DNA of 64,000 nucleotides from Rhodospirillaceae bacterium (GTDB lineage: Bacteria; Pseudomonadota; Alphaproteobacteria; Bin65). Where the stretch lies: NCBI GenBank assembly GCA_028819475.1, contig JAPPLJ010000030.1:248001-312000 (forward strand), read 5' to 3'. Below, in pieces: positions 7,731 to 42,140 of the stretch. Position 1 is the stretch's first letter. Every line of letters begins with the position of its first letter. The notes below the pieces were generated by a model. It worked only from the letters and a program-made list of their open reading frames with translations, was not told the origin of the DNA and ran no database searches. The translations under genes were made by a program, and so were the position numbers.

Positions 7731-7751
7731 CAATGGCAATCGATCCCTATA

Positions 7752-27065: not shown

Positions 27066-27079
27066 ATCGTCCTGCGCCC

Positions 27080-28108
27080 TCACGCGGCGGCGTAGTCCAC
27101 CGGGGTGCCGTGCCAGCCTTCCCAGCGCTTCTGCCAGTAGCGGTCGTGCAGCGCGCGGGTCAGCGGTCCGGGGCCCGGACCGCCGGCGAGCGCGACACCG
27201 TCGACGCTGTTGAGCGGTACGATCCCGCCGGCGCTCGAGGTCAGGAAAGCCTCGTCCGCCTGCATCAACTCGGCCACGGCAACCTTGCGCACCTCGACCT
27301 CGCGGCTGAGATCCCGGACGAGCTCCAGCGCCGTCATGCGGGTGATGCCTTCCAGGCACCAGTCCTCGGGGGTCGCCACGGTGCCGTTGCTGACCACGAA
27401 GATGTTGGAACCGGGCGCCTCGGTGAGGTTGCCCGCGCCGTCGGTGAGCAGCGACCACTCGGCGCCGCGGTCGCCGGCCTCGAACAGGGACATCGCGAAA
27501 TCGAGGCCGTTCAGGTTCTTGGCGCGGGGATCGACCGAACTCGGGGGAATCCGGAAATACTCCCGACTGACGACCGCGTCGGCGCCCCGCGAACGGCGTT
27601 CGTCGTCGGCGATGAAGACATAGGGGATAGCGTAGGCGAAGAAGCGGTTGGCGAAGTTCGCCGGGTCCGTGCGGTCCGCGGCGCGCTGCGGCGTCGCCCC
27701 GCGGGTCACGCCCCACCAGACATAGGCGTCCCGGTATCCGGCCAGCGCCACCAGGCGGTTGAGGACGGCCCGTTCCTCTTCGGCCGCGAGCGGGTTGGTC
27801 AGCCGCACGCGCTTGCAGGAGGCGGCGAAGCGCCGCTGGTGATCGGCGAGGCGGAAGAAGGACCCGCGGCTCACCGAGACGACGTCGTAGACCGCATCGC
27901 CGCGGTTGAATCCGAGGTCGGCGATCGGCACGCCCGCCCGGTCGAGCGGCGTGAACCGGTCGATGACGTAAGCCGCGCCGCCTGCGTATGCCGCGTCGTG
28001 CGGCATGCGCCGGTGCTCCGGGCGAGTCGCCATGATCTCCTGCACGGGCAGCAGCGATGGCGCGGCAGCGGCGTGCGCCCGGTGGTCGGCGGCAAGCGTT
28101 TGCGCCAT
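27080..28108 (-). CDS. Class IV PLP-dependent aminotransferase
   Basis: A 342-residue fold-type IV aminotransferase (branched-chain/D-amino acid aminotransferase group). The PLP lysine is in DPRAKNLNGLDFAMSLF and the conserved Glu follows in LTEAPGSNIFVV; GITRMTALEL is the usual phosphate-binding segment. The N-terminal 45 residues exceed the usual family start. Specificity (branched-chain, D-amino or (R)-amine) is not resolved. GGGAGA precedes the ATG at 28108. It is divergent from the deacylase gene. Confidence 0.88.
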   Translation of the reverse strand: MAQTLAADHRAHAAAAPSLLPVQEIMATRPEHRRMPHDAAYAGGAAYVIDRFTPLDRAGVPIADLGFNRGDAVYDVVSVSRGSFFRLADHQRRFAASCKRVRLTNPLAAEEERAVLNRLVALAGYRDAYVWWGVTRGATPQRAADRTDPANFANRFFAYAIPYVFIADDERRSRGADAVVSREYFRIPPSSVDPRAKNLNGLDFAMSLFEAGDRGAEWSLLTDGAGNLTEAPGSNIFVVSNGTVATPEDWCLEGITRMTALELVRDLSREVEVRKVAVAELMQADEAFLTSSAGGIVPLNSVDGVALAGGPGPGPLTRALHDRYWQKRWEGWHGTPVDYAAA

Positions 28109-28311
28109 GATCGGTCTCCCTGTTTCGTGCGCCGGGTGTCGTGTGCCGTCCGGCCGATAGCCGGTTGTCTCCTGAAATGGGGTGTACTGCAAATCGGATG
28201 CGTTCAACCATGACGAAAGGCGTCGGCCGAGCCGGCCCCGGCGTGGCGCCGAACCCGGCAATGCACTAGCATTCGATCCGGAACAGGGCCGAAGGCCGGG
28301 AGATGCATGGA

Positions 28312-28891: not shown

Positions 28892-29485
28892 TCAGGCCGC
28901 GCGGCCGGACTGTTCGCCCATAATCAGGTCGACCATCAGGTCGAGGCAGCGTTCGAGCCGGCGCGACGGCCCGACCAGAACATAGTTCACGGCGAAGCCG
29001 TCGAACGCCATGAACAGGATATGGGCAAGCGCCGTATCCTGCAGTTGCCGGGCGCGGTCTTCCGGCAGGCAGGACAGGATCAGGTCCGCAATGCGGTGCT
29101 CGGCCCAGAGCAGCAGGTCGCGCGAATAGCGGCCCTCGCGGCCCGAGACCGCCAGTCCCTCGACGAAGGTGTTGCCGAAGGCGCCGTCGGCGGCCGGAAA
29201 CGTCTTCCAGAGCGTGGCAACGATGATCCGCAACCGTTGCCGAGGATCGGCGATTTCCGCCGCCTCGGCTTCGAGCGCCCTGATCTGGTCGCGCAGCCAG
29301 GGGCCGTAGATGGCGAACAGGATATCCAGCTTGGAATCGAAATAGACATAGACGTTCGACGGCGAGATGCCGGCCCTCTTGGCGATGCCGCGGATCGTCG
29401 TCGCGGCATAGCCCCGCTCCTCGAATTCCCGGCGGGCGCTGTCGACAATGCCGGTGCGGACATCTTCCTTCTTCGTTTGCGCCAT
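28892..29485 (-). CDS. TetR-family transcriptional regulator
   Basis: A 197-residue TetR-type repressor. The N-terminal helix-turn-helix is visible in AREFEERGYAATTIRGIAKRAGISPSN-like sequence with VYVYFDSKLDILFAIY at the end of the DNA-binding domain; the remainder is the helical ligand-binding domain. It is divergent from the NicX-like operon with 139 bases between starts, and a 23-bp near-perfect palindrome lies in that gap. It very probably controls that operon, itself and the ABC transporter at 37628, where the same core site occurs. The inducer is unknown. Confidence 0.88.
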   Translation of the reverse strand: MAQTKKEDVRTGIVDSARREFEERGYAATTIRGIAKRAGISPSNVYVYFDSKLDILFAIYGPWLRDQIRALEAEAAEIADPRQRLRIIVATLWKTFPAADGAFGNTFVEGLAVSGREGRYSRDLLLWAEHRIADLILSCLPEDRARQLQDTALAHILFMAFDGFAVNYVLVGPSRRLERCLDLMVDLIMGEQSGRAA

Positions 29486-29534
29486 GGCCGAATCGATCTT
29501 GACTTGCCTGCCGGAAAAACCGCACCTTGGGGCT

Positions 29535-29557
29535 ATAAACGAACAGCGTTCTTTTAT
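29535..29557. promoter_or_regulatory. Candidate TetR operator between divergent genes
   Basis: The arms ATAAACGAAC and GTTCTTTTAT flank AGC and match as an inverted repeat at 9 of 10 positions. On the minus strand the site fills a 17-bp spacer between TTGCAT and TTATAG, so binding would block the tetR promoter. The 18-bp stretch ATAAAAGAACGCTGTTCG on this strand recurs exactly at 37512. Confidence 0.75.
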
Positions 29558-29624
29558 GCAACGCCCCCCGGTCTGCGGGCAAGGGGCCGGGCGGGCGAAG
29601 ACCGGCGACGGAGGGAGACGGAAC

Positions 29625-30704
29625 ATGGTGCATTTCAATCAGCGCGCGCAGGAGGTCAATCCGGCCAAGCTGGCCATGCTGTACAAGCGCCAGTTCGAGC
29701 TGTGCCGGATCAAGGAAGGCGAGACGATCGCCTGCGTCTCGGACCTGTCGACCCGGCGCGAATATATCGAGGCCGCCTTCGCCGCGGCCGACGAGCTGGG
29801 CGCCGACATCTACGAGATGTGCGTCAACAGCATCCCGTCCTGGACCCGGGTCGGCGTCGGGACCATCGGCCGATGCAAGGGCACGCTGGAGGCGGCCAAG
29901 GCGGCCGACATGATCGTCATCTTCCACGTCCCGCTGTTCACCCGCTGGCTCAAGGACGTGACCGAAGCCGGCACGAGGGTGCAGATGATCATCGATGCGC
30001 CCGACGATCTCGAACAGCTCATGGCGCCGGAGGGCCTGAAGGAGGCCTGTCTCTACGGCGACGCGCTCTACAGCAAGACGAAGACGGCCCGCGTGATCAG
30101 CGACGCCGGCACGGACCTCACCTGGGAATGCGGCGAATATCCGGTGATGACGCAATACGGCTTTGCCGACGAGCCGGGCCGCTTCGACCACTGGGGCGGC
30201 GGCCATATCCACACCTTCCCCAACGAAGGCTCGGCCAACGGCACGGTCGTGCTCGCGCCGGGCGACATCGTGATCCTGCCCTACTGCCGCTATATCCAGG
30301 ACGAGGTCCGCCTCACCGTCGAGGACGGCTATATCCGCAAGGTCGAGGGTGGGCTGGACGCCAGGCTGATGCAGGACTGGCTGGACGACAACCGGGAAGA
30401 CGAGAACGACATGGACCCCTATGCCATCTCGCATCTCGGCTGGGGCCTGAACCCGCAGGCGCTGTGGTACGGCATCGCGCTGAACGGCGACGAGCCGGAG
30501 CGCAGCCGGGCGGCGGCGCGGACCTTCCCGGGCAATTTCCTGTTCTCGACCGGGCCGAACACCCAGGGCGGCGGCAAGCGCAACACCCGCGGCCACTACG
30601 ACGTGCCGATGCGCGACTGCACGATGATGCTCGACAACAAGGTGATCATCGAGAAGGGGCGGATCGTCGATCCCGCGATGATCGTGCCGCGGGAAATGCG
30701 CTAG
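29625..30704 (+). CDS. NicX-like (2,5-dihydroxypyridine 5,6-dioxygenase) M29-fold enzyme
   Basis: A 359-residue protein of the fold shared by M29 aminopeptidases and the ring-cleaving dioxygenase NicX. His270 (ISHLGWG), His324 and Asp326 (GHYD) match the spacing of the three iron ligands reported for NicX (His265, His318, Asp320). GGGHIHTFPNEGSANG is another family motif. NicX-type enzymes open 2,5-dihydroxypyridine to N-formylmaleamate. The molybdenum hydroxylase and formamidase-like genes downstream fit such a pathway, but the substrate is inferred. GGAGGGAGA precedes the ATG. Confidence 0.75.
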   Translation: MVHFNQRAQEVNPAKLAMLYKRQFELCRIKEGETIACVSDLSTRREYIEAAFAAADELGADIYEMCVNSIPSWTRVGVGTIGRCKGTLEAAKAADMIVIFHVPLFTRWLKDVTEAGTRVQMIIDAPDDLEQLMAPEGLKEACLYGDALYSKTKTARVISDAGTDLTWECGEYPVMTQYGFADEPGRFDHWGGGHIHTFPNEGSANGTVVLAPGDIVILPYCRYIQDEVRLTVEDGYIRKVEGGLDARLMQDWLDDNREDENDMDPYAISHLGWGLNPQALWYGIALNGDEPERSRAAARTFPGNFLFSTGPNTQGGGKRNTRGHYDVPMRDCTMMLDNKVIIEKGRIVDPAMIVPREMR

Positions 30705-30731
30705 CCGGCGCGGCGCTTCCGCTTCGCGGCC

Positions 30732-31193
30732 ATGAAAATCGCCGACAGTTTCGTCGTCGCGGCGCCCGTGGAACGGACCTGGCGGGCGATCCGCGATCCG
30801 CAGGTCGTCGGCGCCTGCCTGCCCGGCTGCGAAGAGATCGAGGCCGTGTCGCCGACGCTCTACCGCGCCCGGATCGGCGTCAAGCTCGGGCCGATCGCGG
30901 CCAAATTCGCCGCCGAGGTCGAAGTGCTCGAGGAGGAGCCGCCCGTCAGGGTCGTGACGGTGACGCGGGGCGAGGAAGGCGGCCGTGCGAGCAACCTGCG
31001 CTCGGACAACATCCTGACCCTGGCGCCAGCGGAGGACGGCGGAACGCGGGTATCTTATGAAGCGGACATGACGGTTACCGGCCGGCTTGCCAAATTCGGT
31101 TTCGGGGTGATGAAGAAGAAGGCGCAGGCGCTGGCCTCGGAATTCGCCGGCAATCTCGAAGCCCGCGTCAACGAAGCGGCATCCGGCGGATAA
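30732..31193 (+). CDS. SRPBCC/CoxG-family protein
   Basis: A 153-residue START/SRPBCC-fold protein of the CoxG type: MKIADSFVVAAPVERTWRAI at the start, then PQVVGACLPGCEEIE. CoxG-like genes accompany molybdenum hydroxylases and are thought to help anchor or mature them. The fold has a hydrophobic cavity but no catalytic residues I can name. It lies between the ring-cleavage gene and the three hydroxylase subunit genes. Confidence 0.85.
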   Translation: MKIADSFVVAAPVERTWRAIRDPQVVGACLPGCEEIEAVSPTLYRARIGVKLGPIAAKFAAEVEVLEEEPPVRVVTVTRGEEGGRASNLRSDNILTLAPAEDGGTRVSYEADMTVTGRLAKFGFGVMKKKAQALASEFAGNLEARVNEAASGG

Positions 31194-31199
31194 GCGGCG

Positions 31200-32054
31200 A
31201 TGGAATTCGTCAGGCCTGACAGTATCGACGCCGCGGTCGCCGCCCTGCAGGCGGACGGCGCGGCCTGCCTTGCCGGCGGCGCGACCCTGGTGGCGATGAT
31301 GAACGCGGACCTGGTCGCGCCGGTCCGGCTGGTCTCCCTGCGCGACGTGGCCGGGCTGCGCGATGCGGCCCGCCAGCCGGACGGAACGGTCGTCATCGGC
31401 GCCATGCGCCGCCATCGCGAGACCGCGGAGGAAACCGACCTGCGCGACGGCCAGCGGGCGCTGAGCGAGGCCGCGGCGCAAATCGCCAACCCGCCGGTCC
31501 GCAACATGGGCACCATCGGCGGTTCCTGCGCCTTCGCCGATCCGGCGGCCGATTATCCACCCGCGCTGCTCGCTGCCGATGCGCGGTTCTCGCTGATCGG
31601 CGCCGAGGGCCGCCGCACCGTCCCGGCCGGCGATTTCTTTCTCGACTGGTACGAAACCGCGCTCGAACCGGGCGAACTGATCGAATCCGTCATTTTGCCT
31701 CCGGCGCCGGCGGGAACGGTCGGCAGCTATACGAAACTGGCGCGGGTCGCCGGCGATTTCGCCATCGCTTCGGTCGCGCTGGTGCTCGGCATGGACGGCG
31801 GGGCCTGCACCCATCTGGCGGTTGCCGTCGGCGCCTGCGGACCGGCGCCGGTGCGGCGGCGCGATGTCGAGGCGGACCTGATCGGCGGCGGCCTGGACGA
31901 TACAGAAATCCGGCGGCTGACCGATGCGCTGGCCGAAGCGTTCGACCCGGTCGACGATGTGCGCGCCAGCGCCGATTACCGCCGCCGGGTCGCGCCGCGG
32001 ATGGTCCGGCAGGCCATTGTCGAGGCGCAGCAAAGACTGTCGGAGACGCCATGA
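31200..32054 (+). CDS. Molybdenum hydroxylase FAD-binding medium subunit
   Basis: A 284-residue CoxM/xanthine dehydrogenase medium-subunit type protein. FAD-binding motifs include CLAGGATLVAMMN near residue 25 and NMGTIGGSCAFADPAADYP near residue 103. It passes electrons from the FeS subunit to the acceptor through FAD. Its end overlaps the small subunit gene by four bases (ATGA), so the subunits are translationally coupled in the order M, S, L. Confidence 0.92.
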   Translation: MEFVRPDSIDAAVAALQADGAACLAGGATLVAMMNADLVAPVRLVSLRDVAGLRDAARQPDGTVVIGAMRRHRETAEETDLRDGQRALSEAAAQIANPPVRNMGTIGGSCAFADPAADYPPALLAADARFSLIGAEGRRTVPAGDFFLDWYETALEPGELIESVILPPAPAGTVGSYTKLARVAGDFAIASVALVLGMDGGACTHLAVAVGACGPAPVRRRDVEADLIGGGLDDTEIRRLTDALAEAFDPVDDVRASADYRRRVAPRMVRQAIVEAQQRLSETP

Positions 32055-32548
32055 CCGGCGAACCCGTCACGCTCCCCGTCACACTTCGGGTCAACGGCGC
32101 CGACCGGCCGGTCGCGGCGGTGGCGCCGTGGACGACGCTGCTCACCGTCTTGCGCGACGACCTCGGCCTTACCGGCGCGAAGCGCGGCTGCAACCAGGGG
32201 GTGTGCGGCGCCTGCACCGTGACGATCGACGGCGAGCCGGTGCGCAGCTGCCTGTCGCTGGCGCTCAACTGCGCGGACCGGGACATCGTGACCGTCGAAG
32301 GCCTGGTCCCGGCGGGGGCGCCGGCGGGCGCGCTGGCGCCGGTCCAGCAGGCCCTGGCGGAAGGCAACGCCGTGCAATGCGGCTTCTGCACGCCCGGCAT
32401 CCTGATCTCGGCCCATGCCCTGTTGCGCCGCAACGCGCCGCTGACGGTCGACGAGGTGCGGGCGGGCCTGTCCGGCAACCTGTGCCGCTGTTCCGGCTAC
32501 AAGAAGATCGTCGAAGCCGTCGTGAGCGCTTCGGAGGCGCGGCCGTGA
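32051..32548 (+). CDS. Molybdenum hydroxylase 2Fe-2S small subunit
   Basis: A 165-residue two-cluster ferredoxin subunit. The plant-type cluster ligands are in CNQGVCGACTV and a later Cys (VRSC); the second all-helical cluster is in CGFCTPG and CRCSGYKK. It carries electrons from the molybdenum site to the FAD subunit. It overlaps neighbours on both sides by four bases. Confidence 0.94.
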   Translation: MTGEPVTLPVTLRVNGADRPVAAVAPWTTLLTVLRDDLGLTGAKRGCNQGVCGACTVTIDGEPVRSCLSLALNCADRDIVTVEGLVPAGAPAGALAPVQQALAEGNAVQCGFCTPGILISAHALLRRNAPLTVDEVRAGLSGNLCRCSGYKKIVEAVVSASEARP

Positions 32549-34872
32549 CCCCGCTCGATACAGCTGCGACCGGCGTCGGCAGCAGCCTGCCCCGGCTCGA
32601 TGCCCGGGAAAAGGTCACTGGCCGGGCAACGTATATCGCAGACATGGTCTGGCCCGGCATGCTGCACGCTGCGATCCACGCCAGCCCGCATGCCCATGCC
32701 CGCATCCTCGGATACGACACGAGCGCCGCCCTCGCCGTGCCGGGCGTTGCCTGCGTGCTGACCGGCGACGATTTCCCGGACGGCCGCATGGGCGCCTTCA
32801 TCAAGGACGAGCCCGCCATCGCCAAGGGCAAGGTGCGCTATCCGGGCGAGCCGGTCGCCGTCGTCGCCGCTGAGGACGAGGAGACGGCGCGCCGGGCGGC
32901 GGCGCTGATCCGGGTCGACTACGAGGACCTGCCCGTCGCCGCCACGCCGGAGGAAGCCGTGGCGCCGGATGCGCCGCTCATCCACGAGGGGCTGGCGGAC
33001 TATTTCAAGGTCTTTCCGGCCATCTGCGGCGGCAATGTCGCCTCGGAGACCGAACTGTCGGAAGGCGATGTCGACGCCGCCTGGGCGGATTGCGACGTGA
33101 TCGTCGAGGGCGACTTCGAGACGCCGGCCCAGGCGCATCTCTCCATCGAGCCGGTCGGCGCGCTGGCGGAGGTCGATGCCGAGGGCCGGGTCACCCTGTG
33201 GTCGGCCAACCAGTCGGTGTTCCGGGTCCAGGCCAATGTCTGCGAGGCCCTGCAACTGCCGATGTCGAAACTGCGCTGCCTCACGCCCAAGGTCGGCGCC
33301 GGCTTCGGCAACAAGATGGAGCCGCACGTCCAGCCGCTCGTCGTCCAGCTGGCGCTCAGGACCGGCCGTCCGGTGAAGCTGATTCTCAACCGGACCGAGG
33401 ATTTCGAGACGGTGCGCGCGCGCCACCCGTTCAAGATCCGCTGCAAGACCGGCGCGAAGAAGGACGGCACGCTGGTGGCGCGCGAACTGACCGCCGTGCT
33501 GGACTGCGGCGCCTATGGCGACGACAGTCCCGGCGTGCTCGGCTACAGCCTGCTGATGAGCCGCGGGCCCTACCGCATCCCGCACTGCCGCGCCTCCGGC
33601 AAGCTGGTCTACACCAACCGCATGCGCTTCGGCGCGTTCCGCGGCTTCGGCAATCCCCAGGTCACCTTCGCGACCGAAAGCCAGATCGACGAGATCGCCG
33701 GCCGGCTCGGCATGGACCCGCTCGACCTGCGCATGAAGAACAGGATGCAGCCCGGCGACCGCTGGTTCGGCGGCGGCGAGGTCGCCTCCAACGGACTGGC
33801 GGAATGTATCGAGAAGGCGAAGGCGGCGGCGGGCTGGGCGCGGGGCCGGGAGCCGCCGGCGCCGCCGGGCAAGCGGCGCGCGCTGGGCGTTGCGGCCTGC
33901 GCCCATATCAGCGGCCTGCTGGCGACCGGCGCCATCGTCCGTCTGCTCGAGGACGGCTCGGTCGTGCTCAACACCGGCGCGGTGGATATCGGCCAGGGCT
34001 CCGACACAGTGCTGACCCAGATGTGCGCCTCGGCGCTGAAGGTTCCGGTCGACCGGGTGGCGATCGCCAGCCCGGATACCGACGGTTCGCCCTACAACTG
34101 GGGCACGACGGCGAGCCGCATCACCTACACGACCGGGCGCTCGGTCGTCGCGGCGGCGGACAAGGTGGCGGAGCAGATCAAGCGCCACGCCTCGGAGATT
34201 TTCGAATGCGCCGTCGAGGACCTGGAACTGCGCGACGGCGGCCGGGTCGGCATCAAGGGCGTGCCGGACAAGGAGCTGAGCTTCTTCGAAGTCTCCGGCC
34301 GGGCGCACTGGGCCGCCGGCGGCCCCATCGTCGGCACCGATACCTGGGTCTACAACCAGCCGAGCGTCGATCCGAAACGGGCCGTCGCCAGGGGCCTGCC
34401 GTTTCCCCAGATCGGGGTCTACAGCTTCGGCTGCATGATCGCGGCGATCGAAATCGACGAGACGACCGGCAAGGCCGAAGTCGCCGAGGTCTGGTCGGCG
34501 ATGGATGTCGGCAAGGCGATCAATCCCGGCTCGGTCGAGGGGCAGATCGAGGGCGGCTTCGTCCAGGGCATGGGCTTCGCGCTGACCGAGGAGATGGTGT
34601 TCGACGGGCCGCGCCTCGCGAACCCGTCGATGATGGACTACAAGGCGCCGACATCGCTCGATGCGCCGTTCGATATCCATTCCATCATCGTCGAGGCCGC
34701 GGAACCCGGCGGGCCGTTCGGCGCCAAGGGGATCGGCGAGATCGGGCTGGTGCCGGTGCCGGCGGCGATCGCCAATGCGGTGGCGGCGGCGATCGGCACG
34801 CGGCTGCGCCGGCTGCCGCTGACGCCGGAGCGGGTGCTGGACGGGATGCTGGAGGGCGGCGATGAGGATTGA
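32545..34872 (+). CDS. Molybdenum hydroxylase large (molybdopterin) subunit
   Basis: A 775-residue xanthine oxidase-family catalytic subunit. The active-site loop is FGAFRGFGNPQ, unlike the VAYRCSFR loop of CO dehydrogenase, so it is not a CO oxidiser. The catalytic Glu is in GAKGIGEIGLVP near the C-terminus, and GQGSDTVLTQM binds the pyranopterin. Such enzymes hydroxylate carbons next to ring nitrogen or similar positions. GTG 32545 overlaps the small subunit stop and follows GGAGG, which fixes the start. Its neighbours suggest an N-heterocycle substrate. Confidence 0.92.
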   Translation: MTPLDTAATGVGSSLPRLDAREKVTGRATYIADMVWPGMLHAAIHASPHAHARILGYDTSAALAVPGVACVLTGDDFPDGRMGAFIKDEPAIAKGKVRYPGEPVAVVAAEDEETARRAAALIRVDYEDLPVAATPEEAVAPDAPLIHEGLADYFKVFPAICGGNVASETELSEGDVDAAWADCDVIVEGDFETPAQAHLSIEPVGALAEVDAEGRVTLWSANQSVFRVQANVCEALQLPMSKLRCLTPKVGAGFGNKMEPHVQPLVVQLALRTGRPVKLILNRTEDFETVRARHPFKIRCKTGAKKDGTLVARELTAVLDCGAYGDDSPGVLGYSLLMSRGPYRIPHCRASGKLVYTNRMRFGAFRGFGNPQVTFATESQIDEIAGRLGMDPLDLRMKNRMQPGDRWFGGGEVASNGLAECIEKAKAAAGWARGREPPAPPGKRRALGVAACAHISGLLATGAIVRLLEDGSVVLNTGAVDIGQGSDTVLTQMCASALKVPVDRVAIASPDTDGSPYNWGTTASRITYTTGRSVVAAADKVAEQIKRHASEIFECAVEDLELRDGGRVGIKGVPDKELSFFEVSGRAHWAAGGPIVGTDTWVYNQPSVDPKRAVARGLPFPQIGVYSFGCMIAAIEIDETTGKAEVAEVWSAMDVGKAINPGSVEGQIEGGFVQGMGFALTEEMVFDGPRLANPSMMDYKAPTSLDAPFDIHSIIVEAAEPGGPFGAKGIGEIGLVPVPAAIANAVAAAIGTRLRRLPLTPERVLDGMLEGGDED

Positions 34873-35689
34873 CGACTATCCCGCGCAGGAGCCGCTCTCG
34901 GATTTCGCCCGGCCCTATCACGAAGAGGTGCTGCGCCGCGCCGGGGGCGTTGCCTACGAAGAATTCCGCTATGGCGGCAACGCCTATCAGAGCGTGCTGG
35001 TGGCTCGGGCCGCGGCGCCGACCGGCGACGTGCTCGCCTTCATCCACGGCGGCGGCTGGACCAACGGCTACAAGGAATGGATGGCCTTCATGGCGCCGGC
35101 GCTGACCGCACGCGGCGTGACCTTCGCCTCGATCGGCTACCGGCTGGCGCCGGGCACCCTGTTCCCAGACGGCTTCCACGATGTGCTCGACGGCTTTGCC
35201 GCGCTGCGCGGCCGGATCGGCGGTGTCGGCGGCGATCCCGGCCGGATGTTCGTCGGCGGCCACTCGGCGGGCGGCCACTACAGTGCGCTGATGGCGGTGA
35301 CGGACGGATGGCAGGCGGCGCGCGGGTTGCCGCCGGATGCCGTGCGCGGCTGCCTGCCGGTCTCCGGCGTGTTCGACTTCCGGCCCGGCAACGGCATGTC
35401 GGCGCGCCCGCGTTTCCTCGGCCCGGAGGAGTCCGGCGCCGAGACGCCGGCCAGCCCGGTCGCCAATATCGAACGCACCCCGCCTTTCCTGCTGGCCTGG
35501 GGCAGCGCGGATTTCCCGCATTTGCGCACCCAGGGGCAGGCGATGGCCGACGCCCTCGAAGCGGCCGGCGGCAGCGTCGAAACCATGATCCTCGACGGCT
35601 GCGACCACCTGGAGGCCAGCCTCGAAACCGGCAACCCGGCCGGCCTGTGGCCCGAACGCGCCGCGGCCTGGATGGCGGAGCAGGGGTAG
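34862..35689 (+). CDS. Kynurenine formamidase-like alpha/beta hydrolase
   Basis: A 275-residue alpha/beta hydrolase with oxyanion motif HGGGW at 62-66, nucleophile Ser135 in GGHSAGGHYSALM, probable acid Asp217 in WGSADF and His249 in CDHLE. HGGxW together with GHSAGGH is typical of bacterial and yeast kynurenine formamidases. In this operon it could hydrolyse the N-formyl amide expected from NicX-type ring opening; this is inference. It overlaps the large-subunit gene by 11 bases. Confidence 0.82.
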   Translation: MRIDDYPAQEPLSDFARPYHEEVLRRAGGVAYEEFRYGGNAYQSVLVARAAAPTGDVLAFIHGGGWTNGYKEWMAFMAPALTARGVTFASIGYRLAPGTLFPDGFHDVLDGFAALRGRIGGVGGDPGRMFVGGHSAGGHYSALMAVTDGWQAARGLPPDAVRGCLPVSGVFDFRPGNGMSARPRFLGPEESGAETPASPVANIERTPPFLLAWGSADFPHLRTQGQAMADALEAAGGSVETMILDGCDHLEASLETGNPAGLWPERAAAWMAEQG

Positions 35690-35740
35690 AGCCGGGACTA
35701 TCGAGACCGGCTTTAGAGGGTGGCGCGAAATCCCCCAATT

Positions 35741-35773
35741 CCTCCCCCTCTGATAGAGTATTCCCCTGCGAAA
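35741..35773 (-). repeat. Dispersed repeat, left inverted copy
   Basis: Read on the minus strand this begins TTTCGCAGGGGAATACTCT and ends AGAGGGGGAGG. It matches the plus-strand sequence at 36373-36405 with few mismatches, so the two copies point in opposite directions around about 600 bp. Parts of it recur at 53755-53820. Confidence 0.75.
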
Positions 35774-35827
35774 AGCCGTGAGCCGGGTCGGTTTCCAAAA
35801 ATATTTCCTTTTTTTCGATAATTTTCC

Positions 35828-35856
35828 TTGACACGGGTCATCCCGCGCCCTATATC
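35828..35856 (+). promoter_or_regulatory. Near-consensus sigma-70 promoter in the gene-free segment
   Basis: TTGACA at 35828-35833 and TATATC at 35851-35856 are separated by 17 bases. The 30 bases before it are very AT-rich (AAAAATATTTCC followed by a T-run), resembling an UP element, in contrast to the surrounding GC-rich sequence. No convincing reading frame follows. Confidence 0.6.
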
Positions 35857-36255
35857 GGCCCCGTCAACGCCCGAAGTGCGCCTGCCGCGGCCGGCCGACG
35901 CCCCTCCCGAAAAGAAGCAAACGAAGAAACCGGCGGAGGACCGTGCGGGACCGTTCCGCTCTTCCCGCTTTCCGGCCCGCCGCCGCCAGCCGGCCATCCT
36001 GTGCGCCGCCCCAAGCGCCATTGGGCTTGACGGCCGGACCCCGTCCGGTTCGACCCTCCGATTCCGCCGGGCCATGCTGGCCCCGATCCTGGCCCCTGAT
36101 CCTGCCTGGCGGTGCCGCTCTGGTGTCGACCGGCGCTGCCGCTCGGCCGGGAGGCTGGAAAATTTCCTATCCGGATTGATTTTGCGCATTCCCGAAGGGC
36201 GTGTTTCCAACGATTCCAAAGGGTTAGGGCTGCCGGGTGCAAAAAAACATATTAT

Positions 36256-36273
36256 TTAGAACGGTCTGTCTAA
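36256..36273. promoter_or_regulatory. TTAGA...TCTAA palindrome, possible regulator site
   Basis: TTAGA and TCTAA flank eight bases. On the minus strand it reads TTAGACAGACCGTTCTAA, similar in form to TetR-family sites, and overlaps TATTAG, which has TTTGAA 16 bases before it. It is a possible promoter/operator pointing left into the gene-free segment; there is no regulator gene beside it. Confidence 0.35.
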
Positions 36274-36309
36274 TACCAAAAACAGAGCAATTTCAAAGAC
36301 TTAGGGAAA

Positions 36310-36337
36310 CTGATTTTGAACATTTATTCAAAATCAG
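36310..36337. terminator. Perfect AT-rich hairpin downstream of the Gfo/Idh gene
   Basis: CTGATTTTGAA and TTCAAAATCAG form an 11-bp perfect stem with loop CATTTA, 93 bases after the stop of the minus-strand dehydrogenase gene. It may terminate that gene, though the T-run that follows on that strand is weak and the stem is AT-rich. Confidence 0.4.
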
Positions 36338-36372
36338 GCCGTTTTCCGGCCTCCAGCCCGTCCGGCGCACCC

Positions 36373-36405
36373 TTTCGCAGAGGAATCCTCTGAAGAGGGG
36401 GAAGG
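36373..36405 (+). repeat. Dispersed repeat, right inverted copy
   Basis: This begins TTTCGCAGAGGAATCCTCT and ends AGAGGGGGAAGG. It is the inverted partner of 35741-35773. The 17-base core TTTCGCAGAGGAATCCT occurs exactly again at 53804. Confidence 0.75.
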
Positions 36406-36429
36406 AAATTATCTGATTCTTGTCGATAT

Positions 36430-37416
36430 TCACGAATGCCGCGCTTCGCGCCATGCGCCGTTCGCGGCGGCCGAGGCGGCCAGCGCTTCCATGACGGCGA
36501 CGTTGGAAATTGCCTCCTCCGGCGTCACGGCGACCTTGCCTTCGCCGCGAATCGCCGCCGCAAAACGGGCGAGTTGTTCTGCCACCGTATCGACCGGTTC
36601 GACGGGCAGCGCTTCGATCGTCCCGTCGATGCGAAGGCGGGTCAGGCGTGCGAAGTCGTCGCTTGCGGTGAAGATCCCGTTCGTGGTGCAGACCCGCAGC
36701 CAGGCGTCGAGCGACGTCGCGAACAGGCTGGTGAGAGTCGCGGTCAGGCCCGAGTCGAATTCGAGCAGCGCGGTCGTGGCATCGTCGATATCCACCGGCG
36801 CGGCGGCCCGGCGTGCCAGGCAGCTGACCCGGGCGACCGGGCCGAACAGCCACTGCATCGTATCGACGATGTGCAGCCCCATGGAGGCCATCCCGCCGCC
36901 CGGCGCTTCCGCGCGCTGCGCCCGCCACATGTCCGGGCGGTAGGCGAGAGCGCTCGGGCTGGAGAAATGGCCTTCGAGATGGAGCACCGTTCCGAAAGCC
37001 CCCTCCTCCAGCAGGCCGCGCAACCGTGTTGCCGCGCCGCTCAGCCGCCGGTTGTGCCCGACGGCGAGCACGGCGCCGGCTTCGCGGCAGGCCGCGGCCG
37101 CCGCCCGGCCGCTCGCCGCGGTAAGCGTGAACGGTTTCTCGACGAAGACATGCCTGCCGGCACGGCCCGCGGCCGCGACCTGTTCGGCGTGCAGCGAATG
37201 CGGCGTGGCGATCAGCACGGCGTCGACCGCAGGATCGGCCAGCGCGTCGGCGAAAACCGGCCCGGCAGGGCAGCCAAAGTCCTGCGCGAAGGACCTCCGC
37301 TCTTCGGCATCGGGCGAGACGCCGGCGACGAGATCGAGGCCGGGGACATGGCCGGCCGCGCGCGCCAGTTCGCGGCCCCACCAGCCCAGCCCGATAACGG
37401 CAACCCCGATTCCCAC
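36430..37416 (-). CDS. Gfo/Idh/MocA family oxidoreductase
   Basis: A NAD(P)-binding sugar-dehydrogenase-type protein of about 328 residues. The Rossmann start VAVIGLGWWGRELARAAG is followed by the family motif VFVEKPFTL and a C-terminal substrate domain with MGLHIVDTMQWLFG. I chose GTG 37416, preceded by GGGGGAGAA, because a TTG at 37512 would add 32 repeat-rich residues (ETGQETGRETGR). It is divergent from the ABC transporter operon. The substrate is unknown, and its link to the regulon is uncertain. Confidence 0.82.
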   Translation of the reverse strand: MGIGVAVIGLGWWGRELARAAGHVPGLDLVAGVSPDAEERRSFAQDFGCPAGPVFADALADPAVDAVLIATPHSLHAEQVAAAGRAGRHVFVEKPFTLTAASGRAAAAACREAGAVLAVGHNRRLSGAATRLRGLLEEGAFGTVLHLEGHFSSPSALAYRPDMWRAQRAEAPGGGMASMGLHIVDTMQWLFGPVARVSCLARRAAAPVDIDDATTALLEFDSGLTATLTSLFATSLDAWLRVCTTNGIFTASDDFARLTRLRIDGTIEALPVEPVDTVAEQLARFAAAIRGEGKVAVTPEEAISNVAVMEALAASAAANGAWREARHS

Positions 37417-37428
37417 GGCTTTCTCCCC

Positions 37429-37464
37429 CCGGCCCGTTTCCCGGCCCGTTTCCTGGCCCGTTTC
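37429..37464. repeat. Three tandem copies of a 12-bp unit
   Basis: The unit CCGGCCCGTTTC occurs twice exactly and a third time with one change (CTGGCCCGTTTC), just upstream of the GTG start of the dehydrogenase gene. Copy number could vary between strains and alter its 5' leader. Confidence 0.75.
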
Positions 37465-37511
37465 CGGGCGCCAGGCCGGTGTATCATGGCTGCCGGCGCC
37501 GGGTGAATTCA

Positions 37512-37529
37512 ATAAAAGAACGCTGTTCG
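37512..37529 (+). promoter_or_regulatory. Candidate TetR operator before the ABC transporter operon
   Basis: ATAAAAGAACGCTGTTCG is identical to 18 bases in the tetR/NicX-like intergenic region at 29535. It contains the dyad GAAC-GCT-GTTC. It sits within a 17-base spacer between TTCAAT and TATTGA, the same position as at the tetR promoter. The transporter gene starts 99 bases downstream. Confidence 0.75.
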
Positions 37530-37627
37530 GTATTGACCGCGGGCGCAGAACCCGGTGAAGTGCGAACGGAGCGCTCTTCGGCCGCCGATCCCCCGGCGGC
37601 CGGACCAGAAACGGGAGGATTGCGCAT

Positions 37628-38806
37628 ATGAGGAAATTCGTTGGAGCTTTGGCGGTTTCGGCCCTTGCGGCTGCGGCCTGGGCGGCGCCGGCGGCGGCAG
37701 CCGAGGTCAGGATCGGCTATTCGATCGCCAAGACCGGCCTGTTCGCGCCGGCCGCGCCGTCGCAGATCAACGCCTACAACCTTTGGGCGGAGCAGGTGAA
37801 CGCCCGCGGCGGCCTGGACATCGGCGGCAAGGAAAGGCGCAAGGTCACGCTGATCCAGTACGACGACCAGTCGAACCCCGGCAACGCGGTGAAGATCTAC
37901 GAGAAGCTGATCACCCAGGACAAGGTGGACCTGCTGCTCTCGCCCTGGGGCACGCCGCACCACTTCGCCATCGCGTCGGTGCTCGAACGGCACAAGTTCC
38001 CGATGATCGGCAGCACGGCCTCCTCGGTCCAGCTGCGCAACATGAAGCCGGGCAACATCTGGTTCACGACCGCGGCGGTGGCCGACAAGCTGGCGACCGC
38101 GATGGTCGGGCTGCTCAATTCGGCCGGCGTCAAGTCCGTGGCGGTCCTGACCAACCAGCTTCCCTTCGGCCAGGAAAACAAGAAATTCCTCATGCCGGCC
38201 CTGAAGGCCGCCGGGATAAAGGTCCTCGTCGATGCCGATTATCCGCCGAACATCAAGGACATGACGGCCATCCTCGTGAAGGTGAAAGCGGCGAACCCGG
38301 ACGGCGTGATCGGGCTGGCCTATCCGGGCGACTCCATCCTCTACATCAACAAGGCGCGCGAAGTCGGCATCGCCGCGAAGTTCCAGTATCTGCTGGTCGG
38401 GCCGGCCATCGGCTTCTTCCGCGGCATGTTCAAGGGCGCGGCCGACGGCATCGTCACCCTCGGCCACTGGTCGCCGCACGGCGACAACGCCCGGTCGAAG
38501 GCGTTCTACGCCGCCTACAAGAAGAAATTCAAACAGGAGCCGGACTATCTCGATTCGGTCGAGGCCTGGGTCTCGGTCGAAATTCTCGAGCAGGCGGTTG
38601 CGAAGGCCGGCCTCGACAAGAACAAGCTGCGCCAGGCGATCTCGACCGGCACCTTCGACACCATCATCGGCAAGGTCCGGTTCGACGGCGTGCAGAACGC
38701 CGTGACGCCGACCGGCTTCCTGCAGATCCAGAAGGGCGAGCTGCACATCGTCTGGCCGAAAGACCGCCAGACCGCGCCGCTCGCGCCGAAGACCGGTTGG
38801 AAATAA
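37628..38806 (+). CDS. ABC transporter substrate-binding protein, branched-chain type
   Basis: A 392-residue type I periplasmic binding protein with a signal peptide (MRKFVGALAVSALAAAAWAAP, cleaved near AAA-EV). The mature start VRIGYSIAKTGLFAPAAPSQ and the segment LLLSPWGTPHHFAIASVLE are typical of LivK/amide/urea-type receptors. It supplies ligand to the LivHMGF-like components downstream. Ligand is not predictable, but the shared operator with the NicX-like operon suggests an aromatic or N-heterocyclic acid. GGGAGGAT precedes the ATG. Confidence 0.88.
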   Translation: MRKFVGALAVSALAAAAWAAPAAAAEVRIGYSIAKTGLFAPAAPSQINAYNLWAEQVNARGGLDIGGKERRKVTLIQYDDQSNPGNAVKIYEKLITQDKVDLLLSPWGTPHHFAIASVLERHKFPMIGSTASSVQLRNMKPGNIWFTTAAVADKLATAMVGLLNSAGVKSVAVLTNQLPFGQENKKFLMPALKAAGIKVLVDADYPPNIKDMTAILVKVKAANPDGVIGLAYPGDSILYINKAREVGIAAKFQYLLVGPAIGFFRGMFKGAADGIVTLGHWSPHGDNARSKAFYAAYKKKFKQEPDYLDSVEAWVSVEILEQAVAKAGLDKNKLRQAISTGTFDTIIGKVRFDGVQNAVTPTGFLQIQKGELHIVWPKDRQTAPLAPKTGWK

Positions 38807-38889
38807 GGCGGTTTCGCTTCAGACTGCGTTGTGACGGAGCGGCCTTCGTGCCGCTCCCTCTTTCTGCGAACCGGACCGGATAGCGGAAC

Positions 38890-39777
38890 GTGGAGATTCT
38901 CCTGTCGGGGCAGCTCCTGGTGGCGGCCCTGATAATCGGCTCGATCTACGGGCTGGTGGCGCTTGGCCTGAACCTGATCTACGGCACCATGCGGCTGCTG
39001 AACATTGCCCATGGCGACCTGGTCATGATCGGCGCCTACACCGGCTACTGGCTGTTTACGCTGGCGGCGGTCTCGCCGGTGCTGGCGATGCTCGCCGCCG
39101 GGGCGCTTGCCGGCCTCACCGGCGCGGCGCTCTATTTCGGCCTGTTCCGGCGCCAGCTCGCCGGCAGCCAGCCGATCGAGCGGATCGAGGCCAATTCGCT
39201 GCTGATCTTCTTCGGCATCTCGATCGTCATCCAGAACCTCACGGCGCTCGCCTTTACCGCCAGCCCGCGGACCTATCAGGCCCTCGATACCCTGGTCCGC
39301 ATCGGCGAGGTCAGCATCACCCAAAGCCGCCTCGTCGCCCTGGCGGTCTGCCTCGGCCTGTCCGCCGCCATCGTCCTGTTCCTGCGCTTCAGCGCCCTCG
39401 GCCTGTCGATCCGCGCCCTGATCCAGCACCGCACCGCAAGCCGGATCGTCGGTATCGATGTCGACCGGGTGCAGGCGTTCGCCTTCGTGCTCGGCTTCGC
39501 GCTCGCCGGACTGGCTGGGACGCTGATCGGCGTGACCGAGCAGATTTCGCCGTTCATGGGCTTCCCCTTCACCATCGTCGCCTTCGTCGTGATCGTCCTG
39601 GGCGGGCTGGGCAACCTGGCCGGCGGCATCGCGGCCGGCATGGTGCTCGGCCTGATCGAGACCTACGGCGTCGCGCTGACCTCGGCAAACCTGCGTTCGG
39701 TGCTGATCTACGGCGTCTTCATCCTGGTCCTGGTGCTGCGGCCGGAAGGCCTGCTGCAGCGGCGGCGCCTGACATGA
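38890..39777 (+). CDS. Branched-chain-type ABC permease (LivH-like)
   Basis: A 295-residue inner membrane permease starting at GTG, with about eight hydrophobic helices. GSIYGLVALGLNLIYGTMRLLNIAHGD is the LivH signature (written here in two parts: GSIYGLVALGLNLIYG and LLNIAHGD), and GGLGNLAGGIAAGMVLGL lies near the C-terminus. It overlaps the LivM-like gene by four bases (ATGA). Confidence 0.92.
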   Translation: MEILLSGQLLVAALIIGSIYGLVALGLNLIYGTMRLLNIAHGDLVMIGAYTGYWLFTLAAVSPVLAMLAAGALAGLTGAALYFGLFRRQLAGSQPIERIEANSLLIFFGISIVIQNLTALAFTASPRTYQALDTLVRIGEVSITQSRLVALAVCLGLSAAIVLFLRFSALGLSIRALIQHRTASRIVGIDVDRVQAFAFVLGFALAGLAGTLIGVTEQISPFMGFPFTIVAFVVIVLGGLGNLAGGIAAGMVLGLIETYGVALTSANLRSVLIYGVFILVLVLRPEGLLQRRRLT

Positions 39778-40703
39778 GGCTGCTTGCGCCGAGCGAGGCC
39801 GTGCCGCTGCTGCTGGTCGCGGCGATCGCCCTGGTCCTGCCGCTGCTCGGCAGCGACTACTATCTCGGCGTCGGCTTCGCCCTGTTCGGCTGGATCGCCC
39901 TGGCGCAGAGCTGGACAATCGTCTCCGGCCTGGCCGGCTATATCTCGCTCGGCCATGTCGTGTTCGCCGGCATCGGCGGCTATGTCTTCGTCCTGACCTG
40001 GGGCGCGGTGCCGGTCTGGGCCGGCGCCTTGCTCGGCGCCCTGGCGGCCGGCCTGTTCGCCCTGCTGGTCGGCCTGCCGGTGCTCCGGGTGCGCGGGCCC
40101 TATTTCGTGATCCTGACCTTCGGCCTCGCCGAGTTCGCCAAATATGTCGTCATCAATATCGAGAACGCGCTCGGCAGGTTCGGCCGTCTGATCCTCGGCG
40201 GGCCGCCGCTGGAAACCCTCTACTGGGCGATGGCGGCGCTTGCGCTGGCCGGAACCCTGGCGGTGGTCGCGATCCGCCGCCGGCGCCTCGGCGCCGGCCT
40301 GGTGGCGATCCGCGAGGACGAACTGGCCGCGGGCACGATCGGCGTTCCGACCGTGCGCTTCAAGCTGTTCGCCTTCGCGCTGTCGGCCCTGCTGCCGGGC
40401 TTCGTCGGCGCCCTGTTCGTCCTGCGCACCGGCTATTTCGAGCCGGCACAGGCGTTCGATCCGGTGGTCTCCTTCACCATCGTCACCATGGCGATCGTCG
40501 GCGGCAGCGCGGATGCCCGCGGGCCGGTCTTCGGCGCCCTGTTCCTCGTCGCGCTGTCCGAACTGTTGTGGTCGAACTTCCCGCAGGTCTACATGATCGT
40601 CCTCGGCACCTTGCTGGTCGGTTTCGTCCTGTTCGCGCCCAACGGCGTCTCCGGCCTGTTCGAACGCCGCCGGGCGCCGGACGCTGCAACGGCGAGCGGC
40701 TAG
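39774..40703 (+). CDS. Branched-chain-type ABC permease (LivM-like)
   Basis: A 309-residue permease with about nine helices. It has the LivM features GYISLGHVVFAGIGGYVF and VRGPYFVILTFGLAEF, and a cytoplasmic loop with AIREDELAAGTIGV. It forms a heterodimer with the LivH-like protein encoded just before it. Confidence 0.92.
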   Translation: MRLLAPSEAVPLLLVAAIALVLPLLGSDYYLGVGFALFGWIALAQSWTIVSGLAGYISLGHVVFAGIGGYVFVLTWGAVPVWAGALLGALAAGLFALLVGLPVLRVRGPYFVILTFGLAEFAKYVVINIENALGRFGRLILGGPPLETLYWAMAALALAGTLAVVAIRRRRLGAGLVAIREDELAAGTIGVPTVRFKLFAFALSALLPGFVGALFVLRTGYFEPAQAFDPVVSFTIVTMAIVGGSADARGPVFGALFLVALSELLWSNFPQVYMIVLGTLLVGFVLFAPNGVSGLFERRRAPDAATASG

Positions 40704-40707
40704 CGCC

Positions 40708-41424
40708 ATGCTGAGCGTCGAGCGGATCGGCAAGTCCTTCGGCGGCGTCCGGGCGTTGCAGGACGTTTCCTTCGCGGTGCCGGAGCGCAGCATCTTCGGC
40801 ATCATGGGCGCCAACGGCGCGGGCAAGACCACCCTGTTCGCGATCATCGCGGGCAACCTGACGCCGAGCGCCGGCGCGGTCCGGCTCCGCGACCTGCGGC
40901 TCACCGGCCTGCCGCCGCACCGGGTCGCCGCGGCCGGCGTGGCGCGCACCTTCCAGATCGTGCGGCCGTTCCGCAGCCTGTCGGTACAGGAGAATGTCGA
41001 AACCGCCCTGCGCTTCGGGGCGCGGGACCGTCCCGCCGCCGCGCCGGCGGACGCCGCCGCCATCCTCGGCCTGACCGGACTCGAGGGCGCGGCCGGCCGT
41101 CCCGCGGGCGCCCTGACCCTGGCGCAGCAGAAGCGGCTGGAGGTGGCGCGGGCGCTGGCGACCGGCCCGCAACTTCTGATGCTGGACGAAGTGATGGCCG
41201 GCCTCACGCCCGCCGAAGTGCAGGACACGATCGCCATGGTCCGCCGCATCCGGGACGATATGGGCGTTACCGTGATGATCATCGAGCATGTCATGGGCGC
41301 GCTGATGGCGCTGTCGGACCACGTCGTCGTGCTGGACCACGGCGAACTGATCGCCTCAGGGCTGCCGGCGCAGGTCGCCGACGATCCGGCGGTCCGGTCC
41401 GCCTATCTGGGGCGGCGGCATTGA
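40708..41424 (+). CDS. ABC transporter ATP-binding protein (LivG-like)
   Basis: A 238-residue ATPase. Walker A is GANGAGKTT, the segment VARTFQIVRPF is the Q-loop region typical of LivG, Walker B is LLMLDEVMAGL and the H-switch is in MIIEHVMG. The signature normally LSGGQ reads LTLAQQK here, a known divergence within the LivG group. Downstream ATPase overlaps by four bases. Confidence 0.91.
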   Translation: MLSVERIGKSFGGVRALQDVSFAVPERSIFGIMGANGAGKTTLFAIIAGNLTPSAGAVRLRDLRLTGLPPHRVAAAGVARTFQIVRPFRSLSVQENVETALRFGARDRPAAAPADAAAILGLTGLEGAAGRPAGALTLAQQKRLEVARALATGPQLLMLDEVMAGLTPAEVQDTIAMVRRIRDDMGVTVMIIEHVMGALMALSDHVVVLDHGELIASGLPAQVADDPAVRSAYLGRRH

Positions 41425-42140
41425 CGGGCGGCGCGCTGCTCGAAGTCGAAGGCCTGACGGGCGGCTACGGCCCGCTCCGGGTGCTGCACGGCATCGATTT
41501 CGCGGTGCCGGCGGGGCGGATCACGGCGCTGGTCGGCGGCAACGGCGCCGGCAAGACGACGACCATGGCCATGCTGGCGGGCCTGCTCGCGCCGTCGGCA
41601 GGCACGATCCGCTACAAGGGCGACGCGGTCGAAGGCTGGAGCGCGGCGCAGCGGGTCGCCGCCGGCCTCGTCCTGGTGCCCGAAGGCCGGCTGGTCTTTC
41701 CCGACATGACGGTGGAGGAAAACCTCCGGCTCGGCGCGATCAACCGGCAGGCGCGGCCCCATGCGGGGGAAGAACTGGAAGGGGTCTATGCCCAATTCCC
41801 CCGGCTGGCGGAGCGCCGCCGTCAGGCCGCGGGCACGCTCTCCGGCGGCGAACAGCAGATGCTGGCGCTGGGCCGCGGCCTGATGTCCCGCCCGCGGTTG
41901 CTGCTGCTCGACGAACCGAGCCTGGGGCTGGCGCCGGTGATGGTCGACCTGATCTTCGACGCCATCGGCGACCTCGCCGGAGCCGGCATGACGATCCTGC
42001 TCTCGGAGCAGAATGTCGGCCTCTCGCTCGAACTCGCCGAGCGGGCCTATGTGCTCGAAAACGGCTCAATCGCACTTGCCGGTTCGGGCCGCGACCTGCT
42101 CGGCAACGCCGGGGTCCAGCGGGCCTATCTGGGGTTGTGA
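41421..42140 (+). CDS. ABC transporter ATP-binding protein (LivF-like)
   Basis: A 239-residue ATPase starting at TTG overlapping the previous stop (TTGA). Walker A is GGNGAGKTT, the signature is LSGGEQQMLALGR, Walker B is LLLLDEPSLGL and the H-loop position carries Gln in LLSEQNVG, as is usual for LivF. It completes the five-gene transporter. Confidence 0.92.
   Translation: MTGGALLEVEGLTGGYGPLRVLHGIDFAVPAGRITALVGGNGAGKTTTMAMLAGLLAPSAGTIRYKGDAVEGWSAAQRVAAGLVLVPEGRLVFPDMTVEENLRLGAINRQARPHAGEELEGVYAQFPRLAERRRQAAGTLSGGEQQMLALGRGLMSRPRLLLLDEPSLGLAPVMVDLIFDAIGDLAGAGMTILLSEQNVGLSLELAERAYVLENGSIALAGSGRDLLGNAGVQRAYLGL

What the first reader, a model, noticed from the sequence alone, without database searches (positions are those of the whole stretch)
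28892..42140. Identical 18-bp operator links a TetR gene, a ring-cleavage/molybdenum hydroxylase operon and an ABC transporter operon
ATAAAAGAACGCTGTTCG occurs on the minus strand at 29540-29557 and on the plus strand at 37512-37529. Both contain the dyad GAAC-N3-GTTC and both fill a 17-base spacer between promoter-like hexamers (TTGCAT/TTATAG and TTCAAT/TATTGA). At 29535 the dyad extends to 10-bp arms with one mismatch. One site lies between the TetR gene and the NicX-like operon, the other before a five-gene uptake system, so uptake and degradation of one compound look jointly repressed. An 18-base chance match at two such positions is very unlikely.
Basis: partly seen in the sequence, partly recalled or inferred. 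Interest (0 to 1): 0.85.

Follow-up and report, generated by a model that had tools for sequence, protein, structure and literature searches.

The report
Shared TetR operator joins uptake, degradation
Two copies of one short DNA palindrome lie in front of a set of genes for a predicted ring-degrading pathway and in front of a predicted uptake pump; the neighbouring TetR-type protein likely binds both and would keep them off together until their still unknown compound arrives, and similar palindromes accompany relatives of this regulator in distantly related bacteria.

Summary
Confirmed: the 18-mer is where stated, with no other copy within 3 mismatches in the window or the 4.48-Mb genome. It is the core of a 23-bp palindrome found, in 7 of 7 genomes of the genus, both between tetR and nicX and before the transporter operon. 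A matrix from this genus alone puts the locus-best site in the tetR-nicX gap in 18 of 21 distant loci; 500 permuted matrices averaged 2.7, at most 14. Of 30 nicX loci from the class, 9 of 9 with an adjacent TetR homologue have the site, 0 of 21 without (4 of the 9 outside the training genus). One TetR repressor most likely controls uptake and degradation together. Corrections: the transporter promoter is more likely TTGACC-N17-TGAAGT; the NicX-like enzyme is a separate subfamily (Gln at NicX Glu177), so 2,5-dihydroxypyridine is not established as the compound; exact 18-mer repetition alone is weak evidence. A new member of a known kind; binding and inducer are untested.

The parts
28892..29485 (-). 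TetR-family regulator (197 aa), proposed repressor of both operons
   Evidence: Pfam TetR_N 59.9 bits, cut-off 24; predicted all-helical fold, mean pLDDT 89; Foldseek best matches FadR and KstR entries
29535..29557 (.). operator 1, 23-bp palindrome ATAAACGAAC-AGC-GTTCTTTTAT between tetR and nicX
   Evidence: palindrome kept in 7 of 7 genus genomes
29533..29561 (-). predicted tetR promoter TTGCAT-17-TTATAG overlapping operator 1 (TTGCAT in 6 of 7 genus genomes, not in G005; second hexamer TTATAG or TTATGG)
   Evidence: sequence; comparison; no transcription data
29625..30704 (+). NicX-like non-heme Fe ring-cleaving dioxygenase (359 aa)
   Evidence: PDB 7cn3 (NicX) E 5.7e-68; four Fe ligands conserved
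30732..31193 (+). CoxG-like SRPBCC protein
   Evidence: Pfam COXG 81 bits
31200..32054 (+). FAD subunit of a molybdenum hydroxylase
   Evidence: Pfam FAD_binding_5, CO_deh_flav_C
32051..32548 (+). 2Fe-2S subunit of the molybdenum hydroxylase
   Evidence: Pfam Fer2_2, Fer2
32545..34872 (+). molybdopterin-binding large subunit (GTG start inferred)
   Evidence: Pfam MoCoBD_1, MoCoBD_2, Ald_Xan_dh_C
34862..35689 (+). alpha/beta hydrolase, candidate deformylase/amidase
   Evidence: Pfam Abhydrolase_3 73.9 bits; role inferred
36430..37416 (-). Gfo/Idh/MocA-type oxidoreductase between the two operons (GTG start inferred); no such gene between hydrolase and binding protein in G005
   Evidence: Pfam GFO_IDH_MocA (scanned as the longer ORF 36430-37512); G005 layout
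37512..37534 (.). operator 2, ATAAAAGAACGCTGTTCGGTATT, upstream of the transporter operon
   Evidence: site kept in 7 of 7 genus genomes
37533..37561 (+). predicted transporter promoter TTGACC-17-TGAAGT; its -35 hexamer overlaps the operator edge
   Evidence: TTGACC-N17-T[GC]AA[GTC]T in 7 of 7 genus genomes; the consensus scan did not list it
37628..38806 (+). periplasmic solute-binding protein of a LIV-type ABC transporter
   Evidence: Pfam Peripla_BP_6 216.5 bits
38890..39777 (+). ABC permease (LivH-like)
   Evidence: Pfam BPD_transp_2
39774..40703 (+). ABC permease (LivM-like)
   Evidence: Pfam BPD_transp_2
40708..41424 (+). ABC ATPase (LivG-like)
   Evidence: Pfam ABC_tran, BCA_ABC_TP_C
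41421..42140 (+). ABC ATPase (LivF-like)
   Evidence: Pfam ABC_tran

Best explanation
Two copies of one palindrome, one between the tetR gene and the nicX-like operon and one in front of a LIV-type ABC transporter operon, are likely the binding sites of the neighbouring TetR protein, which would repress a predicted N-heteroaromatic degradation pathway, its predicted uptake system and its own gene until a compound of that pathway releases it. Shown: the sites, their conservation at both promoters across the genus, the co-occurrence of similar sites with this TetR subfamily in Alpha- and (with weak scores) Betaproteobacteria, and the gene content. Inferred: dimer binding to CGAAY/RTTCG half-sites, blocking of RNA polymerase (the operator overlaps the -35 hexamer TTGACC at the transporter promoter and spans the predicted tetR promoter), release by an inducer, and the pathway order (transport, molybdenum hydroxylation, NicX-like ring opening, hydrolysis of the product). 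The identity of the compound is open.
For: Only two such sites in window and genome. Site 1 in 7/7 and site 2 in 7/7 genus genomes; G005 has a perfect palindrome with 16-bp arms at site 1. A matrix trained only on genus sites finds the locus-best site in the tetR-nicX gap in 18 of 21 distant loci (permuted matrices mean 2.7, max 14, 0 of 500 reach 18); with near-identical loci thinned out, 13 of 16 (mean 2.1, max 12). The three misses of the 21 have a lower-ranked site in the gap. Class sample: 9 of 9 nicX loci with TetR adjacent have it, 0 of 21 without. In L058 the four best scores lie in three promoter gaps. In G007, where tetR lies on another contig, the one place matching the palindrome pattern is just upstream of a nicX-like start.
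Against: No binding, expression or inducer data. Five of the 9 positive class loci come from the training genus. The promoter gaps are A+T-rich, so part of the positional signal is composition: permuted matrices also hit them (mean 2.7 of 21; in L058, 72 of 1000 permuted matrices place all four best hits in the gaps). Scores are weak in the five near-identical betaproteobacterial loci (9.1 each) and in L069 (7.3). In G007 the backwards control pattern also matched once, and its tetR has no site of its own. Several TetR relatives show no site at their own promoter (for example L068, L074, L075, L081-L083, L090, L091). Site 1 in this genus lacks the TTGAC -35 edge seen in 13 of 21 distant tetR-nicX loci, so the nicX promoter here is not identified.
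Confidence: 0.9

Rival explanations
1. The TetR protein only autoregulates and controls the nicX operon; site 2 is a relic or chance copy and the transporter is constitutive or under another regulator.
For: In nine distant loci where the binding-protein gene follows the hydrolase on the same strand there is no second site in the 420 bp before it (scores at most -0.1), so the transporter needs no site of its own in these relatives.
Against: Site 2 with its -35/-10 pattern is kept in 7 of 7 genus genomes, also in G005 where no gene of the other strand separates the two operons; in L058 the separate transporter genes have their own sites.
Confidence: 0.06
2. The palindrome is bound by a different regulator and its company with tetR is incidental.
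For: No binding data exist; operators of several TetR subfamilies look alike (recalled).
Against: Only two such sites were found in the genome, which speaks against a global regulator; in the class sample presence follows adjacency of this TetR subfamily 9/9 against 0/21, and the 21 include six close-subfamily nicX loci without the TetR and without the site.
Confidence: 0.03
3. The 18-mer pair is a chance repeat or recent duplication with no regulatory role.
For: 13 repeated 18-mers exist in the window and random sequence of like composition gives 0-13.
Against: Both positions keep a palindrome in 7 genomes, with changes that leave it intact.
Confidence: 0.01

Closest known systems
TetR-family local repressors of catabolic operons (FadR of Bacillus and Thermus and mycobacterial KstR are among the nearest solved folds)
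   Same: HTH and all-helical fold; gene beside its likely target, palindrome in the shared promoter region
   Different: About 20% identity to the solved ones; the likely target is a NicX-like/molybdenum hydroxylase/LIV transporter module rather than lipid or sterol genes
nic (nicotinate) regulon of Pseudomonas putida with NicX and the regulators NicR and NicS (recalled; NicS as a TetR protein is recalled and was not compared)
   Same: NicX-type ring-cleaving dioxygenase and a molybdenum-type hydroxylase under local repressors (recalled for nic)
   Different: The NicX-like enzyme here is a separate subfamily; none of the six genes of the run shows the domains of a flavin monooxygenase, maleamate amidase or maleate isomerase; a LIV-type ABC transporter is joined in; NicS sequence and operator were not at hand
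FabR, FadP, LiuQ, PsrA, RutR: the TetR regulons in the table passages of a 33-regulator survey of Proteobacteria (PMC5343134, passages seen)
   Same: TetR regulators reconstructed from palindromes near metabolic genes
   Different: The passages list other pathways for them; this module is not among those seen

Membership tests
TetR-family regulator | TetR_N helix-turn-helix domain | tested here: met
   Pfam PF00440, 59.9 bits, cut-off 24
TetR-family regulator | all-helical fold with ligand-binding core | tested here: met
   AlphaFold2 model, mean pLDDT 89, ten helices; Foldseek matches to FadR and KstR
TetR-family regulator | binds a palindrome at its own or target promoter | not testable with these tools
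   palindromes present and conserved; binding itself needs a bench test
A named TetR equivalog (BetI, FadR, RutR, AcrR and others) | NCBIfam equivalog cut-off | tested here: not met
   19 models match, all below their cut-offs, e.g. BetI 43 of 201.3 bits
NicX, 2,5-dihydroxypyridine 5,6-dioxygenase | Fe ligands His265, Ser302, His318, Asp320 | tested here: met
   all four conserved in the window protein (residues from PMC7910607, abstract and passages)
NicX, 2,5-dihydroxypyridine 5,6-dioxygenase | substrate-binding Glu177 (with His189 and His105) | tested here: not met
   Gln at 177 and Phe at 105 in the window protein and in the 30 other aligned rows of at least 65% identity (some rows are the same species found twice); His189 kept in the window protein, Gln in 5 of the 31 rows. 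Gln177 also occurs in L089 (47%), L116 and L118, Phe105 in several remote relatives. The paper reports that an H105F variant stays active
NicX, 2,5-dihydroxypyridine 5,6-dioxygenase | activity on 2,5-dihydroxypyridine | not testable with these tools
   needs an enzyme assay
Xanthine dehydrogenase-type molybdenum hydroxylase | FAD, 2Fe-2S and Moco domains in three subunits | tested here: met
   Pfam; FAD and 2Fe-2S subunits lie below the cut-offs of all NCBIfam models that matched (the large subunit was not run there), so the substrate class is unassigned
LIV-type (HAAT) ABC transporter | Peripla_BP_6 binding protein, two BPD_transp_2 permeases, two ATPases | tested here: met

The most novel reading that the evidence does not exclude
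This is an undescribed regulon, spread over Alpha- and Betaproteobacteria, for taking up and opening a heteroaromatic ring that is not 2,5-dihydroxypyridine: a distinct NicX subfamily (Gln177/Phe105), a molybdenum hydroxylase, a hydrolase and an exchangeable transporter (LIV ABC or TRAP) are tied together by one TetR whose operator, typically abutting a TTGAC -35 box, is gained where the operon is broken, so that each transcription unit keeps one.
Probability: 0.4. Interest if true: 0.62.

Novelty: new member of a known kind. Interest (0 to 1): 0.45.

Why it matters
It gives a clean, testable regulator-operator pair for a widespread catabolic module whose substrate is unknown: binding and inducer assays on the TetR would reveal the compound. 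It also suggests that operators are kept or gained when an operon is split, under one local repressor. It does not need a new mechanism.

Tried and rejected
Rejected: the transporter promoter TTCAAT-17-TATTGA (TTCAAT at that place in 2 of 7 genus genomes; TTGACC-N17-T[GC]AA[GTC]T in 7 of 7). Rejected: my own early idea that site 2 arose because a Gfo/Idh gene split the operon; G005 has no such gene between hydrolase and binding protein yet has site 2, about 275 bp before the binding-protein gene (my first look was limited to 260 bp and missed it). Rejected as operators: the third GAACGCTGTTC at window 43581; a 3-mismatch hit at G000:C35:18382, with a twin in G003, which by its reading frame spans the start of another gene. 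Not examined: two 2-mismatch hits, G000:C21:134045 and G000:C30:384640, set aside by their sequence only, and a 3-mismatch hit G006:C155:56939. Led nowhere: finding the regulator or compound in print (listings and abstract starts, capped at 15 of 93, at 12 of 1,700, at 10 of 14; passages only of PMC7910607, PMC6525221 and PMC5343134); NicX relatives on plasmids (202 records, all below 60%). The consensus promoter/terminator scan found no promoter-like pair at site 2.

Dropped rows: only loci with a nicX hit above 40% and a tetR-nicX gap under 700 bp entered (21 of the 37 loci L056-L092). Of the other 16, 15 have no nicX hit in the stretch held; L074 has nicX but tetR at the end of the run, and its best site is at L074:959, 124 bp before an ORF at 1083 that by eye looks like a TRAP-type binding protein. 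In one search, 30 of the 60 matches had loci and were scanned. In one search the 21 loci were thinned to 16 by hand (one pair of 72% TetR identity remains).
Full report
1. The observation. The 18-mer is at both stated places and nowhere else within 3 mismatches in the window (0.01 expected) or in the 4.48-Mb genome G000 as held. A broader 23-bp palindrome pattern with up to 2 mismatches finds the two sites plus two other A+T-rich places in the genome (the backwards control found none; these two were not examined further). Exact repetition alone is not decisive: the window has 13 repeated 18-mers and 20 Markov sequences have 0-13, but this is the only A+T-rich one.

2. The surroundings. tetR (28892-29485, -) diverges from a run of nicX-like, CoxG-like SRPBCC, FAD, 2Fe-2S and Moco subunits and an alpha/beta hydrolase (29625-35689, +). 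A Gfo/Idh-type gene (-) follows, then a LIV-type binding protein, two permeases and two ATPases (37628-42140, +). The starts at 32545 and 37416 are inferred.

3. The genus. The order holds 11 genomes. The palindrome between tetR and nicX is present in 7 of 7 genus genomes, in G005 as a perfect palindrome with 16-bp arms. Upstream of the binding-protein gene a site is present in the same 7. In the alignment the operator core and TATTGACC are kept, followed after 17 bases by T[GC]AA[GTC]T, while most neighbouring columns vary. The -35 hexamer TTGACC overlaps the edge of the operator, so a bound repressor would cover it (inference).

4. Other genera of the family. G009 and G010 (TetR 43% and 40%) have TCAATACCGAAC-N3-[TG]GTCGGTATTG between tetR and nicX, the same half-site as the right half of the window's site 2. 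In G007 (TetR 73%) tetR has no such palindrome upstream, but the one place matching in that genome (3 mismatches; the backwards control also matched once) lies just upstream of a nicX-like start on another, short contig (matrix score 22.9). G008 has neither a match of the pattern nor of the binding protein.

5. Distant relatives. A scan of one genome per species with the TetR alignment gave 52 loci; 44 (L049-L092) match over at least 166 of the 197 TetR residues. The order tetR / nicX-srpbcc-FAD-FeS-Moco-hydrolase-LIV transporter recurs in records titled Rhodospirillales or Rhodospirillaceae, Pararhodobacter and Comamonas, among others. A matrix made only from genus sites puts the locus-best site in the tetR-nicX gap in 18 of 21 distant loci; column-permuted palindromic matrices reach 2.7 on average and 14 at most in 500 trials. 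With near-identical loci thinned out it is 13 of 16 (mean 2.1, max 12). The three misses have a lower-ranked site in the gap (L058 20.4, L064 10.5, L089 11.5). Scores are weak in some: 9.1 in the five near-identical betaproteobacterial loci, 7.3 in L069. In 13 of the 21 the operator runs into TATTGAC on its nicX side, as at the window's site 2; site 1 of the window's genus does not.

6. Presence follows the regulator. In 385 class genomes 47 have a NicX relative at E <= 1e-40; the 60 listed matches fall into two groups, 65-100% identity (15) and at most 39% (45) (one locus of 47%, L089, exists in the other collection). Of the 30 loci fetched, all 9 with a TetR homologue within the stretch (about 1.5 kb each side) have a site upstream of nicX (scores 13.4-34.1) and none of the 21 without has (best 6.4), although 6 of these 21 are in the close group. 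Four of the 9 lie outside the training genus; the other five match partly by construction.

7. Operators and transcription units. Where the transporter genes follow the hydrolase on the same strand (nine loci: L056, L057, L064, L065, L079, L080, L086, L088, L092; L088 has other genes between), or follow tetR (L072), there is no second site in the 420 bp before the binding-protein gene (scores at most -0.1). In L058 the genes are split; its four best scores (21.6, 20.4, 15.3, 14.1; fifth 3.8) lie between a LIV-type and a TRAP-type binding-protein gene (two sites), between a hydrolase and the FAD subunit, and between tetR and nicX. Positions alone are only suggestive there (72 of 1000 permuted matrices put all four in the gaps), but none of 1000 permuted matrices had a fourth score of 14.1 and one had a best score of 21.6 or more. 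Some TetR relatives without nicX in the stretch also have such sites, for example before a hydantoinase A gene (L061; L078 by eye) and a LIV-type binding protein (L075); others show none at their own promoter.

8. The enzyme. The window protein matches NicX (PDB 7cn3, 232.6 bits). The four Fe ligands named in PMC7910607 are conserved. Position 177 is Gln instead of Glu and 105 is Phe instead of His in the window protein and in the 30 other aligned rows of at least 65% identity (some rows repeat a species). The paper reports Glu177 and His189 as substrate contacts and an H105F variant as active (passages). So it is NicX-like in mechanism by inference, but the substrate should not be called 2,5-dihydroxypyridine without an assay; automatic names in one source do so (best 120 of 2093 listed).

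9. Literature. Searches of the held library showed me no paper on a TetR regulator of this module; several lists were capped and subscription journals are mostly missing, so this is weak evidence of novelty. Passages of a survey of 33 Proteobacterial regulators name other TetR regulons.

10. Verdict. The finding is real and the interpretation largely right: most likely a local TetR repressor regulon joining uptake and degradation. This is a new member of a well-known kind; the open and more interesting points are the compound and the way operators track operon breakage.

Noticed in passing
window 24844-28261, minus strand: Luciferase-like monooxygenase, alpha/beta hydrolase and class IV aminotransferase in a row beside a tRNA-editing-domain gene; none of the window's four best operator scores lies there.
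   Followed up: partly
window 42215-43798: A 527-aa ORF with an N-terminal Rieske domain and a long C-terminal part without a Pfam match starts about 75 bp after the last ATPase gene; not found in the roughly 870 bp that the G005 contig holds beyond its livF. It also contains the third GAACGCTGTTC.
   Followed up: partly
L046 (G010), about 6100-8800: Between hydrolase and transporter G010 has extra genes that by eye look like an amidohydrolase and an amidinohydrolase-type enzyme (from L041); they might hint at the compound.
   Followed up: no
L061:10992-11009, L078:5435, L075:16814, L081:16806, L082:9754: Operator-like sites in loci with a TetR relative but no nicX in the stretch; genes beside them include hydantoinase A (L061, Pfam) and a LIV-type binding protein (L075, Pfam). 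The TetR subfamily may control several catabolic modules.
   Followed up: partly
G000:C43:31342-32364: A second, 36%-identical NicX relative in the own genome, away from the two operators.
   Followed up: no
window 2273 and 6238; 7756 and 53755; 20097 and 20118; 49007 and 49108: Other repeated G+C-rich 18-mers in the window.
   Followed up: no
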